Shown: positions 37,571-44,224 of the stretch, piece by piece | Numbering within the stretch: position 1 is the stretch's first letter | How the letters are laid out: every line of letters begins with the position of its first letter | Assembly (NCBI RefSeq): GCF_004382795.1 | Contig: NZ_SMSG01000009.1 | Span: 1-64,000 of the forward strand | Reading direction: 5' to 3' | DNA: 64,000 nucleotides | Origin: Cumulibacter soli | Lineage (GTDB): Bacteria > Actinomycetota > Actinomycetes > Mycobacteriales > Antricoccaceae | The notes under the pieces: generated by a model | Told to the model about the DNA's origin: nothing | The model's database searches: none | What the model saw: the letters and a program-made list of their open reading frames with translations, nothing else | Translations under genes and position numbers: made by a program

Positions 37571-37586
37571 GCGGAGGCGGATGGGA
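37571..37586. repeat. Copy of the tRNA-Sec 3' end
   Basis: GCGGAGGCGGATGGGA here matches 15 of 16 bases at 37686-37701, which is the 3' terminal part of the tRNA-Sec gene, in the same orientation. It may be an old attachment-site duplication or chance in GC-rich DNA. Confidence 0.35.
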
Positions 37587-37638: not shown

Positions 37639-37685
37639 AAAGTTCGAGGTGGAGCCCTCGTACCTCGGACCCCACCTCGAACTTT
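37639..37685 (-). terminator. 14-bp perfect hairpin after tRNA-Sec
   Basis: AAAGTTCGAGGTGG (37639-37652) and CCACCTCGAACTTT (37672-37685) are exact inverted copies. On the minus strand the hairpin begins one base after the tRNA-Sec 3' end, so it should end the selenocysteine transcript. The A/T-rich stem base gives a U-run on the RNA. Confidence 0.8.
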
Positions 37686-37686
37686 G

Positions 37687-37779
37687 CGGAGGCGGACGGG
37701 AATCGAACCCGCCTAGCCGAGGTACTCGGCTACATCGGTTTTGAAGACCGTGAGGGCCACCAGGCACCTGGACGCCTCC
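37687..37779 (-). tRNA. selC: tRNA-Sec (anticodon UCA)
   Basis: A 93-base tRNA on the minus strand. The anticodon loop CUUCAAA carries UCA (37742-37744), which reads UGA. The acceptor stem has seven pairs (GGAGGCG/CGCCTCC) with a possible eighth mismatched position, and the discriminator is G. The T-arm GCGGG-TTCGATT-CCCGT matches the E. coli tRNA-Sec T-arm closely. The D-stem is long with a tiny TGGT loop, and the variable arm has a 7-bp AGCCGAG/CTCGGCT stem. Long variable arm, short D-loop and UCA together are diagnostic. CCA is not encoded. It is the last element of the Sec island. Confidence 0.96.
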
Positions 37780-37924
37780 ATAGGATGCGACTATACGGCC
37801 TGTCGACGGCGCAGTTTCGTCCGGAAGACGACGCAGCCTCCTGTGGAACTAGCGCCGAGCGTTTTCACACCAACGCGGCGACGACCGATGCACGCCGCAT
37901 AGAACTGGGCCGAGCCGACGACCG

Positions 37925-38446
37925 TTAGCGCGAGGTAATCTCCGCGACGATCGCCTCGAATGCGTCGTCGGCGTACTGCCGCATCTCCTCGTCGGTGCGG
38001 TCCTGGATCGGGTGCGGGGTGAAAACGCGCGCCACATCGCTGAAGCCCAACGCATCGGCCTGGGTTTGTGCGGCCTCTACGAACACGTTGGAAGCGACGA
38101 ACACGCCGGGAACTCCGCGCTGTTCCAGGTCACTGATGTCATGCACACTGCACGACGTGCAACTGCCTCAATCGGCGAGCGCTTCGATCACCATCGTGCA
38201 TTGCTGGGAAATCTCGTAGCGCAGGTCCGCCGGGGCCGGTTTGGTGAACGTCGGCTTGGCGTAACGATGTACGTCGGCGACACCTGCTCCGCGAAGTCGC
38301 TCTTCGAGGCGGTCCAGGAACACGTTGCCACGAGGCTTGGCGATGTCCAGCAGGCCAATAACCTGGCCTTCCAGGGACGCCGGACGTGCGACTCGCTGCC
38401 GTTCGATCGGCTCACGTTCACCGGTCGGGTCGAGGATAACGGTCAT
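37925..38446 (-). CDS. UGSC-family selenoprotein, in-frame UGA read as selenocysteine
   Basis: A 173-residue protein whose codon 93 is TGA (38168-38170). Reading through it gives VIEALAD-U-GSCTSCSVHDISDLEQRGVP in one frame, which matches the UGSC family of (seleno)proteins. Upstream of Sec the protein has LLDIAKPRGNVFLDRLEERL; downstream GVPGVFVASNVFVEAAQ and PHPIQDRTDEEMRQYADDAFEAIV. An ordinary caller would split it into a 92-residue and a 73-residue piece. The ATG at 38446 follows AAGGAGGGCAGCG. It lies 25 bp after a thioredoxin-fusion gene and just before tRNA-Sec, with selD-selB-selA upstream. Sec93 and Cys96 or Cys99 could form a selenenylsulfide; the catalysed reaction is not known. 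Confidence 0.93.
38138..38156 (-). promoter_or_regulatory. Candidate bacterial SECIS hairpin
   Basis: In the mRNA GUCGUGCA-GUG-UGCAUGAC forms an eight-pair stem (one G-U) with a GUG loop, starting 11 bases after the UGA. The loop is 19 bases from the UGA, within the spacing known for bacterial SECIS elements, and starts with the expected G followed by U. SelB would bind here to deliver Sec-tRNA. A competing shorter stem UGCAC-GUC-GUGCA overlaps it. Confidence 0.65.
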
Positions 38447-38471
38447 CGCTGCCCTCCTTGTCGACTGCGCG

Positions 38472-39914
38472 TCACGCTACCACCTCGCGGGTGACCGGAG
38501 TAGATCCCATCGCGCCTCGCGCCCAGCCCCCGATGACCGCCGAGAACAGACCCGCGGTGCCACCGGCGTACGCGATCATCAGCCCGCCGGGAGCGAACTT
38601 GTTGATCACCTTGCCGGTCATCGCCGGCGGTAGGCCTTCGGCGTTACCGCCGACTCCGACCAGCAGTTCCTCCGATGGGATCTCCAACCGATCGCGCAAC
38701 TCCTGCACGATCTTCTCGTATGACCAGCCGGCATCCTGAAAGCGCGCTCCGTGCTCTGGGCTGAGCACCAGGATCGCGTCGAAGCCTTGAACTGCCTTCG
38801 GGTGATGGACCGTGCGCATGCACGCGGCGATGCTGTTGGCCAATTCATCGGCCGTGCGGGACTTCTGGTCCACGATGCAACGCGGGCCCTCCCCCGCGAA
38901 CACGGTCAAGGCGTCGACCCCGGCCTCGACACCTCGGGCCTGCGCCAACGATCCGAACGGCGAGTCAGAGCGCTCTGCAAAGCAGAACGACAGTTTGCCG
39001 GGGTTTCCGAGGTTGGCGCGATCGACCCCGCCAGGGCGGCCGTTACCAATATTGCGAACGACGAGTTGTACGGCGCGCCCGATCGTCATGTTCGCCCGAT
39101 TACCCTGCCCGAGCGCGTTACCGCCGGAATTCATCCCGATGGCTTCGGTGCCGGGACCACTGCACACGATCACCGGCCCGACCGGCATCGTCGTCGCGAG
39201 CACGCCGTGGATATTGAATTCGTCGTTGCAGATTGCCTCGACCGCGGTCAGTACCCACGGCAGGTACTCCGGCAGGCAACCCGCCATGACGGCTGCGATC
39301 GCGACTTTCTCGACGGTGGCATCGATCAGGTCCGGCGGGATGTTCGCGACGATGTCCTGCGGATCACGGGTGGTTCCAGACAGCATTCGCATGACGCGTT
39401 CTTCGGTGGGTGGTACGACCGGCAAACCATCGGTCCAGCCACGCATGAACAGTGCCTCGAACTCGTCCTCCTGTTCGGCGAGTTCGATACGTCGCGCGTG
39501 CAGGAGGCCACCCTCGTATTTCACCCGCAGCGCGTCGACCTTGTCCGGATCGACCGACATCGAGCCGCAGCCGGGCCGGAAACCGGGCAGGTCCGAGCCG
39601 AGATCGCTCAACCCGGTGACCTTTTCCCACTGCTCGCGCACCCAGCCAAACGTGCGCTCAACCTCCGCGCCGTTCTCGACCCGAATCACCGTCGGGACGG
39701 TTTCGATATCGAGTTTCCAACTGACCTCGAGCTCAGTGTCGTCGCGGGGGTCGACCTCGGCCGGAAAGTTCAGATCGTCCTGGGTATACACGGTCAGCTC
39801 GACGCCATCACGGCCCTTGATGTCCTGCAGCACCGGCTCAATCAGTTGGCAGGTGGCGCATTCCTTCTTCACTATGACGACGAGGCCATCAGGTAAATCG
39901 ATCGCGGCGCTCAT
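38472..39914 (-). CDS. Thioredoxin-like domain fused to a UGSC-associated domain of unknown function
   Basis: 480 residues. The first 110 form a thioredoxin-like domain with LVVIVKKECATCQLIEPVLQDI (Cys19-Ala-Thr-Cys22), the cis-Pro region ETVPTVIRVENGAEV and the closing helix. The rest (about 115-480) is a domain I cannot name. Its conserved-looking blocks are GWTDGLPVVPPTEERV, MAGCLPEYLPWVLTAVEAI, HGVLATTMPVGPVIVCSGP, NSGGNALGQGNRANMTIGRA, GNPGKLSFCFAERSDSPFG and LVGVGGNAEGLPPAMTGKV. The start follows GGAGGGCCC. It sits directly before the UGSC gene, so the thioredoxin part probably reduces the selenoprotein or a shared substrate. That role is inferred. Confidence 0.8.
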   Translation of the reverse strand: MSAAIDLPDGLVVIVKKECATCQLIEPVLQDIKGRDGVELTVYTQDDLNFPAEVDPRDDTELEVSWKLDIETVPTVIRVENGAEVERTFGWVREQWEKVTGLSDLGSDLPGFRPGCGSMSVDPDKVDALRVKYEGGLLHARRIELAEQEDEFEALFMRGWTDGLPVVPPTEERVMRMLSGTTRDPQDIVANIPPDLIDATVEKVAIAAVMAGCLPEYLPWVLTAVEAICNDEFNIHGVLATTMPVGPVIVCSGPGTEAIGMNSGGNALGQGNRANMTIGRAVQLVVRNIGNGRPGGVDRANLGNPGKLSFCFAERSDSPFGSLAQARGVEAGVDALTVFAGEGPRCIVDQKSRTADELANSIAACMRTVHHPKAVQGFDAILVLSPEHGARFQDAGWSYEKIVQELRDRLEIPSEELLVGVGGNAEGLPPAMTGKVINKFAPGGLMIAYAGGTAGLFSAVIGGWARGAMGSTPVTREVVA

Positions 39915-40011
39915 GGGCCCTCCAACTAGTTCGTGGTCTGGTGCGAGGTTAACCCGCCAGCAATCGTCGGCCCAGCGGCCGCGTCAAACCGACCGCTGAC
40001 GAACGGTGTGC

Positions 40012-41055
40012 CTAGGCGACGGTGATGCGCCCGCTACCTGCGGTAACCGAGCCGATCGCGGCGGCCCGCAGGCCCACCGCTGCGCACTGCTGCAGCGCGG
40101 AATCAACCTGATCGGCAGCGACACCGAATAACAGACCACCGGACGTCTGTGCGTCGGCGAGCATCAGCAATTCGGGCTCGGACTTCCCCTCGGCGCTCAG
40201 AAGCGGGCTGACCCATTCCAGGTTCCGTCGGCTCCCGCCGGGTACGACGCCGTCCGTCGCCAGTTCTGCGACACCGTCGAAGAACAGCACGTCGGCGGCG
40301 TTGATCGTTACATCGACCATCGAGGCGACGGTGAGCCGGGACAGGTGCCCGAGTAGTCCGAATCCGGTGACATCGGTGGCGCCGGTCGACCCGTGTTCCA
40401 GCGCGATCCGCGATGCGTCGCCGTTGGGGGTCGTCATCCAGCCGATCGCCTCATCAACCAGCGATTGACCGGCGCGGCCAAGTTTGATCGCCGTCGTCGT
40501 CACCCCCACGCCCAGCGGTTTGGTCAGGATCAACTGGTCGCCGGCCCGCAACCCGGTGTTGCGCAACAGCCGATCGGGGTGCGCCTCACCGGTGACGGCG
40601 AGTCCGTACTTTGGCTCCGGATCGTCCACGCTGTGCCCGCCGACGATCGCGAAACCGTTTTCGGCACCGACGGACAGTCCACCACGCACGACCTCGCGCA
40701 ACATGTCGGTCGGCAATTCGGTCGACGGCCAGGCGACAAGGTTCAACGCGAACAGCGGCCGACCGCCCATCGCATATACGTCGGAGATCGCGTTGGTCGC
40801 CGACACTCGACCCCACAGGTATGGATCATCGACGAGCGGAGTGATGAAGTCGGTCGTCGAGATCAGCGCGCGCTCCGCATCCAGCCGCCACACCGCTGCA
40901 TCATCGCCAGTCTCGGTGCCGACGATCAATTCGCCGAACTGCGACTGATCGATATCGTCGAGCACGTTCGCGAGTTCGCCGGGAGCGAGTTTGCAGGCGC
41001 AGCCGCCGCCATGGCTGAACTCCGTCAACCGCTTCGATAGTTGAATTCCGGTCAT
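40012..41055 (-). CDS. selD: Selenophosphate synthetase (selenide, water dikinase)
   Basis: 347 residues, standard length. It makes selenophosphate from selenide and ATP, the selenium donor for SelA. The catalytic loop is in SHGGGCACKLAP: Cys19 and Lys22 match Cys17 and Lys20 of E. coli, so this SelD has Cys rather than Sec. The ATP-binding residues lie in GDDAAVWRLD, TTDFITPLVDDPYLWGRVSATNAISDVYAMGG and GGHSVDDPEPKYGL. A later block is TDVTGFGLLGH, then DAQTSGGLLF. The start overlaps the selB stop by ATGA. About 97 bp separate it from the thioredoxin-fusion gene. Confidence 0.97.
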   Translation of the reverse strand: MTGIQLSKRLTEFSHGGGCACKLAPGELANVLDDIDQSQFGELIVGTETGDDAAVWRLDAERALISTTDFITPLVDDPYLWGRVSATNAISDVYAMGGRPLFALNLVAWPSTELPTDMLREVVRGGLSVGAENGFAIVGGHSVDDPEPKYGLAVTGEAHPDRLLRNTGLRAGDQLILTKPLGVGVTTTAIKLGRAGQSLVDEAIGWMTTPNGDASRIALEHGSTGATDVTGFGLLGHLSRLTVASMVDVTINAADVLFFDGVAELATDGVVPGGSRRNLEWVSPLLSAEGKSEPELLMLADAQTSGGLLFGVAADQVDSALQQCAAVGLRAAAIGSVTAGSGRITVA

Positions 41056-42845
41056 CGTGTTTCTCCTTCGGTGGACGGTGGCCTGATGGCGTGCTTATCG
41101 CCGCCCATCCTGCGCGTTCGGCCGGTGCGCTGCAGGTGCTCCATGAGCGGTACGGCGATGCGGCGCGTCGTACCGAGCGCGATGCGCGCTTCACCAAGGC
41201 TGAACGCCCCGTCGAGCGCGGACAACAGGGTCGCGGCCTCCTCAATGGCGTCAGGCGTCAAGTAGATGCCGCGGCCGAGGTCGACGAGGTGACCGTGCCG
41301 ACAGAGTACGCCCAGCGTGCTCGCGTCGAGTCCGAGTTCCCGTAGCCGTGGGGCTTCGGGTGAATAGAACCGCTTGCCCGCGACCTCGACCGCGAACCGT
41401 TGCATCGCCGCGGTACTCGCTGGGCTCATGACCGCGTGGTGCTCACTGACGATGTGGCCGTCGGTGACGGTGAGGTCATCGGTGAGTAGTTCCAGCAACA
41501 CCGCACGGCTGGGCAGGTCAAGATGACGCTGCGCGGCCCCGAGGGAGACTCCGCGTGAGTCTGCGTCTGCCTGCACGTCCGCAGCGACGAGGTCGGCGAG
41601 TTGCGATTCGAGGACCTTCCGGTACGAGGGGTCCAAGCACCATCCGTCGATCGCGGCCGGTAACGCAACGCACCCCATCTTTCGAAGTACGTCGATTCGT
41701 ACCAGGCGTTTGTCCCTAAGGAGCACGGCGGCATCCGGGGCTGTCGAATACTCCGTGAGCGCGGCGGCTCGATGCTTGGCAGCGCCGCGACGGCGAAGTG
41801 CCGGCGGGTCGGGGTCGAGAACCACTGCGGCACCGAGAACGATGTGCTGGCCCGGGTCGCGCAGCACCATTCGATCGCCAATCCGCACCGGCAGCGGGAC
41901 GTCGAAAGTCATCCGCATGTGGTGAGCGTCGAGCGGCCGCAGTCGAGCCTGCAGCGATGCCGTACCGATGTGAACCACACACGCCGCGGGCATCCGGTCA
42001 CGATCAGCGTCGAGGCGGACGTCAATGACCTCAGGTCGCAGGAAGGCATCCGGCGACAGCAGCTGGGAGCCTCGCGGCGCCTCATGCGGAGGAACATTTC
42101 GCAGATTCACCGCTACCCTGCTTGCCCCGCTCACCGACTCGCGTTCCTGGCCGGCGGTCTGCAGCCCACGAATCCGCACTCGCCGAGGATCCGCGCCCTG
42201 CAGCCCGCGAAGTTCGAGTTCGTCGCCGACGCGTAGCGTGCCGTCGGTGAGGGTCCCGGTGACCACCGTTCCAGCCCCGGAGATGCTGAAAGACCGATCC
42301 AGCCAGAGCCGCACATCGCCGTCCGGATGCGGCTCCGGCAGTCTGCGCGCGAGCGCCAGCATCTCCGCACGCAGCTCGTCGAGACCGGCGCCGGTCAGCG
42401 CACTCACCGCGACGGATCGGATGCCCGCGAACCCCGCATCGTCGAGCCGTTCACGAGCCTCAGCCTCGGCGAGTTCGGGCTCCATCAGGTCGCTCTTGGT
42501 GATCACCAGAATCCCATCGCGTACGCCGAGTGCCCGCAAGCCCTCGAGGTGCTCGGTGGATTGCGCCGCCCATCCTTCGTCGGCGGCCACGATGAACAGC
42601 ACGCCGGCGACCGACCCCGCGCCGGCCAGCATCGTGGGCACGTAGCGTTCGTGTCCCGGCACATCAACGAACGCGACGTCCACCTGCTCTGCGAGGGTCG
42701 TCCAGGCGAAGCCCAGGTCCAGCGTCATACCGCGACGCCGTTCCTCATCCCATCGATCTGGTTCGATACCGGTGAGCGCGCGCACCAGCGCCGACTTTCC
42801 GTGGTCGACGTGTCCTGCGGTGGCAAAGACGGCACTTCGTGTCAT
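41052..42845 (-). CDS. selB: Selenocysteine-specific elongation factor
   Basis: 597 residues. The N-terminal GTPase has G1 GHVDHGKS (11-18), switch/G3 DVPGHERYV (61-69) and G4 TKSD (116-119). Two beta-barrel domains follow ([27 protein letters not shown]). The C-terminal region (about 340-597) consists of winged helices that bind SECIS RNA, for example [27 protein letters not shown] at the end. It carries Sec-tRNA to ribosomes stalled at UGA-SECIS. The gene overlaps selA upstream and selD downstream by four bases each, so all three are translationally coupled. Confidence 0.97.
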
Positions 42846-44149
42846 GCGCCCGCCGCGCCCGCGTACCGGATTGATTCACGTACGTTATCCAGGTCTGCGG
42901 CGTCGATCGCGCGCAGGTCCACAATGCATCGATTGTTATCGATTCGTGCGAGAACGGGGATCGGCGCAGCACGCAACGCGGCGGCGTACGACGAGGGCAG
43001 GCTGATTCCGGCGCTTGGGAATTCGGAGCCCGGCGCTCCCCCGCCACCGACCGTCGACACTGTGTCAACCGCGCGCGCATCAATACCGTCGAGCGCCGCA
43101 ACCACGCGCGAAGCGCGCAGCCGCAATTCGTCCACCGGCGTCTCGAACATGTCGATCACCGGAGCCTCCGGTCCGACGACGGTCGCTTCCAATGCTGCGA
43201 GGGTGAGTTTGTCGATGCGGTAGGCCCGCGCCATCGGATGCTTTTTCAAGCGCGTCGCGACATCCGCATCGGCGGTGAAGATCATTCCTGCCTGCGGGCC
43301 GCCAAGGAGCTTGTCGCCCGAGGAGGTCACCACCGCCGCCCCGGCATTCAGGTGCGTCGTTGCATCGGGTTCGTCCGGCAACATCGGGTGCGGATGCAGC
43401 AGGCCGCTACCGATATCGGAGACCACCGGCACTCCGAGGTCGCCCAGTTGGTCGACGCCGACGCCGGTCGTGAACCCCTCGACGCGGTAGTTCGACGGAT
43501 GGATCTTCAGAATCAGTCGGGTGTCCTCGCTGATGGCGTCGCGGTAGTCGGCTAGATGGGTGCGGTTGGTTGTGCCGACTTCTTTGAGGCGTACGCCGGT
43601 TGCCTCGACGAGATCGGGTAGCCGAAATCCGGCGCCGATCTCGATCAGTTCGCCACGGGAGACGATCACTTCGCCGCGACCGCCGAGTGCCATCGCGACG
43701 AGCGCGAGGGCGGCAGCGCCGTTATTGACCACATGTACGCCGCCGGCCGGCGTGACCTCGGCGAGCAGCGCGGCGTTCAGGGACGCGCCTCGGTTGCCGC
43801 GGCGACCGGTATCGAGATCCAGTTCGACGTCGCAGGTACCGGCCGCCACGCTGATCGCGGCCAGCGCCGCGGCCGACAGTGGGCTGCGGCCAAGATTGGT
43901 GTGCACGAGCACCCCGGTCCCGTTCAGCACTCGGCGTAGGCCGATCAGCCCCCGGGACAGGCGGACCTCGAGATCGGCCACGGCCTGCGCGGGGTCGACG
44001 TCACCAGCGCGTACGGCGTCCTGCACTTCGTGCACCACACGTTTGACGAATCGTCGTCCGTACGTCTCGATCGCGGCGGTCGCCACTGCCGTGCTCAGCA
44101 ACGCGTCGGTCCTCGGCACTCGCGCCCGCGGATCGATCGATTCGGTCAT
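42842..44149 (-). CDS. selA: L-seryl-tRNA(Sec) selenium transferase
   Basis: 435 residues. This PLP enzyme converts Ser-tRNA(Sec) to Sec-tRNA(Sec) using selenophosphate. The N-terminal tRNA-binding part has [25 protein letters not shown]. The fold-type I core shows [54 protein letters not shown] and [12 protein letters not shown]. The PLP lysine is Lys280 in [15 protein letters not shown] chose the ATG at 44149 after AAGGGGCGGAT; the frame is open to 44197. It is the first gene of the minus-strand Sec island and is divergent from a PPOX-fold gene. Confidence 0.97.
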
Positions 44150-44224
44150 ATCCGCCCCTTCGGTCACCGGCCGTGCCTGTCGTGCACATCCTTCCACGCT
44201 GTCGAATATTGCCTAGCGAATCCG

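What the first reader, a model, noticed from the sequence alone, without database searches (positions are those of the whole stretch)
37687..44149. Self-contained selenocysteine island with one apparent client
On one strand, in order, lie selA, selB and selD (joined by two ATGA overlaps), a thioredoxin-fusion gene, a UGSC selenoprotein gene and tRNA-Sec, closed by a strong hairpin. Everything specific to making and inserting Sec sits next to one user and its likely redox partner. No formate dehydrogenase, glycine reductase or other usual Sec user is present in the window. The layout looks like a mobile or selfish-use module, in which the Sec system is kept for a single enzyme of unknown function.
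Basis: partly seen in the sequence, partly recalled or inferred. Interest (0 to 1): 0.88.

Follow-up and report, generated by a model that had tools for sequence, protein, structure and literature searches.

The report
Selenocysteine island for one redox enzyme
This bacterial genome keeps all the genes for making and inserting the rare amino acid selenocysteine beside a two-gene enzyme that is the only selenocysteine user found so far, which suggests that something other than the usual formate enzyme can keep the system alive.

Summary
The island is real: selA-selB-selD, a thioredoxin-fusion gene, a UGSC selenoprotein gene with in-frame TGA, and tRNA-Sec, ending in a hairpin. A SECIS stem follows the TGA: 8 of 8 pairs in 27 of 32 TGA/TAG copies, against 1 of 68 Cys stretches. 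UGSC is a named family (NF041046, PF24696), in print since at least 2008.

Two corrections. The fusion gene is mainly a ~330-aa protein found beside UGSC in every true locus compared, including 8 of 8 plasmid loci found through the partner itself: the client is a two-gene enzyme. And UGSC is homologous, Sec on Sec, to the catalytic domain of glycine reductase selenoprotein B (hhalign), suggesting a thioredoxin-fed reductase.

The one-client reading survives the tests made: no Sec formate dehydrogenase, no TGA peroxiredoxin, one UGSC, Cys-type SelD. Both genus mates have Sec-FDH near their sel genes and UGSC elsewhere. The SelB here groups with that of a UGSC cluster in a family mate, not with the genus mates. 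No mobile element was seen nearby. Other selenoprotein families were not searched.

The parts
42842..44149 (-). selA, L-seryl-tRNA(Sec) selenium transferase (ATG at 44149; GTG at 44197 also open)
   Evidence: TIGR00474 400.4 bits, cut-off 267.9; only selA match in the genome at E 0.001
41052..42845 (-). selB, Sec-specific elongation factor; 4-nt overlap with selA
   Evidence: TIGR00475 273.6 bits, cut-off 242.25; only match over the cut-off in the genome; groups with G478 SelB
40012..41055 (-). selD, selenide water dikinase, Cys form (GGGCACKL); 4-nt overlap with selB
   Evidence: TIGR00476 367 bits, cut-off 125; sequence read directly
38472..39914 (-). UGSC partner gene: thioredoxin-like domain with CATC (residues ~1-102) fused to the ~330-aa conserved partner (residues ~145-480)
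   Evidence: thioredoxin fold Z 9.6, 87 residues, rmsd 2.4; partner beside UGSC in every locus compared except L028, which holds neither
37925..38446 (-). UGSC selenoprotein gene, 173 aa, UGSCTSC motif, TAA stop at 37925-37927
   Evidence: NF041046 162.6 bits, PF24696 161.6 bits, translation with TGA=U
38168..38170 (-). in-frame TGA = Sec93 codon
   Evidence: TGA, TAG or a Cys codon at this place in relatives
38138..38156 (-). SECIS hairpin, 8 bp, GUG loop, starting 14 nt downstream of the first base of the TGA
37686..37779 (-). tRNA-Sec, anticodon UCA
   Evidence: ARAGORN, Rfam RF01852 73 bits
37639..37685 (-). strong hairpin directly after tRNA-Sec (19-nt arms, 9-nt loop), possible end of the transcript
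   Evidence: one terminator-like site inside it, in a scan whose number of sites did not exceed shuffles

Best explanation
A client-linked selenocysteine module. SelD makes selenophosphate, SelA converts Ser-tRNA-Sec to Sec-tRNA-Sec, and SelB delivers it at the UGA of the UGSC gene with the help of the hairpin just after it (established roles; the genes, TGA and hairpin are shown). The product is probably the small catalytic subunit of a two-component enzyme; the large subunit is the ~330-aa partner, which here carries its own thioredoxin-like domain (gene pairing shown, complex inferred). By homology to the Sec domain of glycine reductase protein B, the selenolate of Sec93 probably attacks a substrate held by the partner and displaces a leaving group; Cys96 or Cys99 then resolves the adduct as a selenenyl sulfide, and the CATC domain, recharged by thioredoxin reductase, reduces it (all inferred; substrate unknown). 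In this genome the Sec-FDH of its relatives was not found, and the Sec system now seems to be kept for this enzyme alone.
For: Genes, TGA, SECIS. Gene pair: 65/65 Cys loci, 20/20 long phylum loci, 29/30 short loci (20 of them the same loci as the long set), 7/7 family and order loci, 8/8 partner-seeded plasmid loci, always the same strand; single ORFs of 563-583 aa covering both in L080, L086, L089, L090, L091, L095. GrdB homology: E 1.1e-7 for the one comparison, prob 94.2; with motif columns cut from both, E 3.9e-5, prob 70.5; reversed and 20 shuffled controls at most prob 1.3. Thioredoxin link: fused domain in 16 of 20 phylum loci, 14 of them with CxxC; free trxA and/or trxB near the pair in some loci without the fusion, e.g. 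trxB-trxA-partner-UGSC in Arthrobacter, none in 20 sel loci without UGSC. One client. SelB shared with a UGSC cluster; tRNA-Sec, weaker.
Against: No substrate and no biochemical data. Neighbours of the Sec-form pairs are mixed and name no pathway. The partner has no relative in the PDB by sequence and no profile match to GrdB or GrdE, so the analogy to glycine reductase rests on one ~90-residue domain. Three Sec-form loci (L112, L114, L115) lack the fused thioredoxin domain, two (L111, L113) have CPTS in place of CxxC, and most loci without the fusion show no trx gene nearby. Only FDH, AhpC/TSA and UGSC were searched genome-wide for in-frame stops. The AU test rejects SelB but not SelA with the genus mates (p 0.33), and SelD is unresolved, so one common origin of the sel operon is not shown. 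tRNA-Sec is nearly as close to one other order member (89%, G481) as to the G478 cluster (92%). A 97-nt gap separates selD from the partner gene.
Confidence: 0.55

Rival explanations
1. The UGSC pair is a general thiol oxidoreductase or peroxide/disulfide-repair system, with Sec as redox centre and thioredoxin as donor, not a substrate-specific reductive lyase.
For: UxxC motif and thioredoxin link; the 2008 paper grouped it with thiol redox proteins (passages); no shared pathway neighbours seen in Sec loci.
Against: The model gives Rossmann/flavodoxin-like matches rather than thioredoxin; homology to the GrdB Sec domain; constant second protein; several Cys-form loci lie in catabolic-looking regions with CoA transferase, enoyl-CoA hydratase, transporter and LysR or FCD regulator genes.
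Confidence: 0.25
2. The island is an accident of genome rearrangement: sel genes and the UGSC pair became neighbours without functional meaning, and other clients exist elsewhere.
For: In genus mates the pair and the sel genes are far apart or on other contigs; only 2 of 20 other phylum loci have sel genes near UGSC; most selenoprotein families were not searched.
Against: SelB here is closest to that of a UGSC cluster in G478, as is tRNA-Sec by a small margin; sel genes near a TGA-type UGSC recur in G313 and G123, and selB with tRNA-Sec in L057, a Myxococcales contig; no Sec-FDH or TGA peroxiredoxin found.
Confidence: 0.2
3. A recently mobile, selfish Sec cassette that moves between genomes with its client.
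For: Pair tree nests this family inside clades of other families of the phylum; flanks of the pair differ in the four family genomes; a 16-nt near-copy of the tRNA 3' end lies 115 nt away.
Against: No integrase or transposase family among the flanking ORFs scanned; composition close to the flanks; the 16-nt repeat is no longer than other short repeats in the same region; the pair is already in both genus mates and one family mate.
Confidence: 0.1

Closest known systems
UGSC family (seleno)protein, NF041046 / PF24696 (UGSC-containing protein of PMC2398784)
   Same: Score over both curated cut-offs, UGSC motif, TGA with SECIS
   Different: Here beside complete Sec machinery, with no Sec-FDH found in the genome. 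The passages I saw describe neither the constant partner nor a GrdB link; PMC2398784 noted a UGSC/'Unknown_1' fusion whose figure I could not see, which may be this partner, and guessed a Trx-like fold
Glycine reductase selenoprotein B (GrdB, PF07355) with thioredoxin system
   Same: Homologous Sec-containing C-terminal domain, Sec aligned with Sec; thioredoxin as electron donor of the known enzyme (PMC10298544, passages)
   Different: UGSC is 173 aa, without the ~347-residue GRDB part (no PF07355 hit); partner unrelated to GrdB or GrdE by profile
fdhA-selABC clusters with FdhA as the only selenoprotein (PMC1794560, PMC5029168)
   Same: Sec-decoding genes clustered with a single client, linked to gene transfer (passages)
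   Different: Client is UGSC, not FdhA or Sec-SelD, which PMC1794560 proposed as what keeps the trait
UAG-decoding Sec UGSC proteins of Geodermatophilaceae (PMC5330540, citing earlier work)
   Same: Same UGSC family; two TAG copies found in G492, with a CUA-anticodon tRNA beside its sel genes

Membership tests
UGSC family (NF041046, PF24696) | HMM score over curated cut-off | tested here: met
   162.6 against 125 bits; 161.6 against 25 bits
UGSC family (NF041046, PF24696) | U/C-G-S-C motif with in-frame TGA and SECIS in the Sec form | tested here: met
Glycine reductase selenoprotein B (PF07355) | Sec-containing C-terminal domain | tested here: met
   hhalign E 1.1e-7, 90 columns, Sec on Sec; controls
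Glycine reductase selenoprotein B (PF07355) | GRDB domain before the Sec site | tested here: not met
   173-aa protein, no PF07355 match at E 0.1
Glycine reductase selenoprotein B (PF07355) | GrdE (PF09338) partner with pyruvoyl precursor | tested here: not met
   the partner gene has no PF09338 match and hhalign against GrdE gives prob 0.09; the rest of the genome was not searched for GrdE
Glycine reductase selenoprotein B (PF07355) | Proteins A (GrdA) and C (GrdC/D) in the complex | not tested
   not searched in the genome
Thioredoxin (TIGR01068) | Curated score cut-off | tested here: not met
   21 against 96.8 bits for the whole fusion protein
Thioredoxin fold | Fold and CxxC | tested here: met
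   Z 9.6, rmsd 2.4, 87 residues (best Foldseek E 4.3e-3); CATC at residues 19-22
Bacterial Sec-decoding trait | selA, selB, selD and tRNA-Sec present | tested here: met
Integrative mobile element | Integrase/transposase or clear ends beside the island | tested here: not met
   none in 20 flanking ORFs nor in pyk, PNPOx-like, His-phosphatase, acyl-CoA dehydrogenase; only short repeats. ORFs before 25.8 kb and after 57.5 kb were not scanned

The most novel reading that the evidence does not exclude
UGSC plus its partner are a widespread, thioredoxin-fed reductase that shares its Sec/Cys catalytic domain with glycine reductase but works on another substrate, also in haloarchaea and soil bacteria that are recalled to be aerobes. 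In its Sec form it can carry its own decoding machinery (a SelB lineage, and probably tRNA-Sec, found beside UGSC genes in two genera of one family), and it can replace FdhA as the one client that keeps the genetic code expansion alive.
Probability: 0.4. Interest if true: 0.75.

Novelty: new variant of a known kind. Interest (0 to 1): 0.55.

Why it matters
It has been proposed that the Sec-decoding trait is held in bacteria by FdhA, or by Sec-containing SelD where FdhA is absent (PMC1794560, passages seen). This genome seems to keep the trait with neither: SelD has Cys, and no Sec-FDH was found. Of 20 genomes with a TGA-type UGSC that I searched (of 26 known to me), 13 gave no Sec-FDH by TIGR01553, so UGSC may be a third anchor client; whether those genomes have a Sec-SelD or another type of Sec-FDH was not tested, this genome apart. 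The constant partner and the GrdB homology give a long-known orphan selenoprotein family a testable enzyme hypothesis and a defined complex to purify.

Tried and rejected
Mobile element: no integrase, transposase or convincing end repeats; composition close to the flanks. The 16-nt near-copy of the tRNA 3' end (37571-37586) is one of 19 short direct-repeat families and was not pursued.

UGSC as a thioredoxin-fold protein (the 2008 suggestion): the model (pLDDT 94.9) gives Rossmann/flavodoxin-like matches; the top Z of 11.1 and 10.9 are a designed protein and a chain of the methyl-CoM reductase activation complex, with many unrelated rows close behind, so no single relative is claimed. Sequence search of the PDB gave only two matches, both over E 0.05.

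Partner fold: the full-length model matches thioredoxin in its first domain only; weak Foldseek rows for class I fumarate hydratase (E 0.018) and barbiturase were not taken as relatives.

Partner as GrdB or GrdE relative: no match. GrdB in the genome of L092: none.

Neighbour analysis for a pathway: Sec-form loci gave mixed families; Cys-form loci gave short-chain dehydrogenases, LysR/FCD regulators and 2-hydroxyacid dehydrogenases. Only 99 of the 135 ORFs picked for the Sec set (which includes two Cys loci, L109 and L210) and 103 of the 147 picked for the Cys set were scanned (picked, bundled), and only the 25 commonest families are shown.

The related-loci scan back-translated U as Cys, so it was built to find Cys forms; it says nothing on the number of Sec forms.

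Rows left out before a count or tree: UGSC alignment A1 has the window and 25 of the loci L002-L030 (L011, L026, L027, L028 left out); GrdB alignment 13 of 17 matches (L128, L129, L133, L135 left out); GrdE alignment 12 of 15 (L145, L151, L152 left out); partner alignment A2 is a choice of 34; sel trees use 34 of 82 SelB, 33 of 76 SelA and 20 of 34 SelD sequences pulled out (duplicates, EF-Tu-like proteins and many near or distant ones dropped by my list). Eight of 24 plasmid hits were fetched. The first SECIS count left out six TGA copies that I added, which changed 25 of 26 to 27 of 32.

SelD tree: long branches, unresolved. SelA: grouping with genus mates not rejected. The 'quick' tree method was used for the sel genes.
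Full report
Observation. On the minus strand lie selA (42842-44149), selB (41052-42845), selD (40012-41055), a thioredoxin-fusion gene (38472-39914), a UGSC gene (37925-38446) and tRNA-Sec (37686-37779), followed by a 19-nt inverted repeat at 37639-37685. The two 4-nt overlaps are real. The gap from selD to the fusion gene is 97 nt, from the fusion gene to UGSC 25 nt, and from UGSC to the tRNA 145 nt. Before selA lie a pyridoxamine-phosphate-oxidase-like gene and a histidine-phosphatase-family gene, beyond the tRNA a pyruvate kinase, all on the plus strand.

The TGA is very probably read as Sec. The protein passes the curated cut-offs of NF041046 and PF24696. An 8-bp hairpin with a GUG loop starts 14 nt downstream of the first base of the TGA. 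In 26 TGA or TAG loci, 25 keep all eight pairs and one keeps seven; among 68 Cys-codon stretches in 65 Cys-form loci, one has eight and ten have seven. On the 26, two of the eight pairs show changes on both sides, in 4 cells; 0 of 500 shuffles reach the observed share of paired cells, 7 of 500 reach two such pairs, and 143 of 500 reach the number of further pair types, so the covariation is present but modest. The shuffle does not correct for relatedness, the stretch codes for a conserved protein, and the Cys loci are more distant; slid versions pair at most 59%.

The client is a pair. With HMMs built from my alignments, UGSC and the C-terminal ~330 residues of the fusion protein lie together on one strand in 65 of 65 Cys loci, 20 of 20 long phylum loci, 29 of 30 short loci, 7 of 7 loci of the family and order, and 8 of 8 plasmid loci found with the partner and not with UGSC (plasmid search, 8 of 24 hits fetched). 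These sets overlap: the 20 long loci are among the 30 short ones, L001 is the window itself, L022 and L023 are the same DNA as L050 and L067, and L116 the same as L033. L028, a 19-bit hit, holds neither gene. In six Cys loci one ORF of 563-583 aa covers both. The pairs come from Actinomycetota, Alpha- and Betaproteobacteria, Myxococcota, haloarchaea and others. The partner has 23 invariant residues in 34 sequences, no Pfam family over threshold and no relative in the PDB by sequence.

Thioredoxin link. Residues ~1-102 of the fusion protein fold as thioredoxin (Z 9.6) with CATC at 19-22. Of the 20 phylum loci, 14 have such a domain with CxxC and two (L111, L113) with CPTS; L109 (a Cys form) and L112, L114, L115 (Sec forms) lack it. 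In none of the 65 Cys loci does the best match to the window protein reach the CxxC, though a divergent domain could be missed. There, free genes can be found: trxB-trxA-partner-UGSC in an Arthrobacter plasmid, trxB near the pair in Variovorax and Roseovarius (3 of the 8 plasmid loci fetched, one of which has no annotation), and in the scan of the other loci trxB in L060, L066 and L093 and trxA in L059, L060, L066, L085 and L095 within about 2 kb, in L044 and L075 further off. The trx queries came from the plasmid loci, so those three are not independent of the query, and most loci show no trx gene. The same queries gave no hit in 20 sel loci without UGSC. A weak trxB hit in L123 was not followed.

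Relation to glycine reductase. hhalign of the UGSC alignment with 13 GrdB-type proteins gives E 1.1e-7 (for this one comparison), probability 94%, over 90 columns, Sec aligned with Sec. With the motif columns cut out of both, E is 3.9e-5 and probability 70.5%; reversed and 20 column-shuffled controls reach at most 1.3%. GrdE and the partner do not match UGSC, and the partner does not match GrdB or GrdE. In glycine reductase, thioredoxin is the dithiol donor and the selenolate is thought to form a carboxymethyl selenoether that is resolved with a selenenyl sulfide (PMC10298544, passages). I infer a like mechanism; no substrate is shown. In the held library, 5 papers contain both 'UGSC' and 'glycine reductase' (listing); in the UGSC passages I saw of four of them (not PMC7435645), none links the two. 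'UGSC family' gave no paper.

One client. The genome (3.94 Mb, estimated 100% complete) has one UGSC. The Sec-FDH model TIGR01553 finds nothing in it. TIGR01591 finds four family hits under the cut-off, none with a stop. AhpC/TSA gives seven hits, none with a stop. SelD has Cys. Other families were not searched. Of 20 genomes with a TGA-type UGSC, this one included, 7 have a hit over the TIGR01553 cut-off with a TGA, 12 have no hit, and one (G188) has a weak hit without a stop. I chose these 20 from the 26 such genomes seen; the other six were not searched, and in the genomes without a hit other FDH types were not searched, this genome apart.

Relatives. selA over the cut-off is in 42 of 61 genomes searched, this one included, and in all five of the family. 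UGSC is in 7 of those 61, this one included. The genus mates G476 and G477 carry selD, tRNA-Sec, selA, selB and a TGA-type FDH within about 12 kb, with the UGSC pair elsewhere: about 269 kb away on the same contig in G476, on another contig in G477. G478, a family mate, has selA and a TGA-type FDH side by side on one contig, and on another a cluster that by eye holds an MFS transporter, two UGSC-type TGA genes, three partner-like genes, a thioredoxin-reductase-like gene, selB and tRNA-Sec. G479 has selA and a TGA-type FDH-family hit and no UGSC.

Origin of the machinery. The window's SelB and the G478 cluster SelB group with full SH-aLRT support (100); holding the window's SelB with the genus mates is rejected (AU p 8e-53), but the same test for SelA is not (p 0.33), and SelD is unresolved. 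The tRNA-Sec is 92% identical to the G478 cluster tRNA and 80-82% to those of the genus mates, but also 89% to that of G481, another order member. So SelB, and perhaps tRNA-Sec, have a history tied to UGSC genes. The UGSC pair itself is monophyletic in the family (96/92) and nested in clades of other families of the phylum. Elsewhere, with the window's Sel proteins as queries, sel genes near UGSC occur in L106 (selA, selB, selD, tRNA-Sec) and L107 (selB, tRNA-Sec), 2 of 20 phylum loci, and selB with tRNA-Sec in L057, 1 of 65 loci of the Cys set; there a second UGSC copy beside them has an in-frame TGA with a full SECIS stem.

What was known. UGSC proteins as a selenoprotein family (PMC2398784, passages), listed in 2026 among selenoproteins whose functions are largely uncharacterised (PMC13188914, passages), UAG-encoded UGSC in Geodermatophilaceae (PMC5330540, passages), and FdhA-sel clusters with a single client (PMC1794560 and PMC5029168, passages). 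New here, as far as searches go, are the constant partner shown across archaea and bacteria, the GrdB homology, the SelB lineage tied to UGSC genes, and a Sec system without a detected Sec-FDH or Sec-SelD beside UGSC.

Verdict. The most likely function is a thioredoxin-dependent two-subunit reductase.

Noticed in passing
L208:9840-9902 and L209:9898-9960 (G492): Two UGSC genes with in-frame TAG instead of TGA at the Sec site, both with the SECIS stem, and a CUA-anticodon tRNA beside selA (L191:10559-10654) that ARAGORN calls tRNA-Pyl. UAG-coded Sec UGSC is already in print (PMC5330540).
   Followed up: partly
L207:7304-17652 (G478): Cluster with, by eye, a transporter, two TGA-type UGSC genes, three partner-like genes, a thioredoxin-reductase-like gene, the genome's only SelB over the cut-off, a GntR-type regulator and tRNA-Sec: a second client-linked layout.
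   Followed up: partly
L057:6227-10108: Myxococcales contig with selB, tRNA-Sec and, beside them, a UGSC copy with in-frame TGA and full SECIS stem plus partner, next to a second, Cys-form pair on the same contig.
   Followed up: partly
L120:8419-10143 and L122:8323-10008: Sporomusa and Vibrio plasmid proteins in which a weak UGSC match and the partner lie in one protein, near aconitase X and DUF126 genes; a possible pathway clue.
   Followed up: no
L116, L117 and L118: Phosphosulfolactate-synthase-like genes near the pair in Natrinema (L116) and Arthrobacter (L118), and isocitrate lyase/PEP mutase-family genes near it in Natrinema (L116) and Acidovorax (L117): possible substrate clue.
   Followed up: no
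L136:1501-2244: A GRDB-related protein with an in-frame TGA in a different motif (AUSLDHQS), in G436; perhaps a further selenoprotein type.
   Followed up: no
window 37571-37586: 16-nt near-copy (94%) of the tRNA-Sec 3' end, 115 nt beyond it; could be an old attachment site or chance.
   Followed up: no
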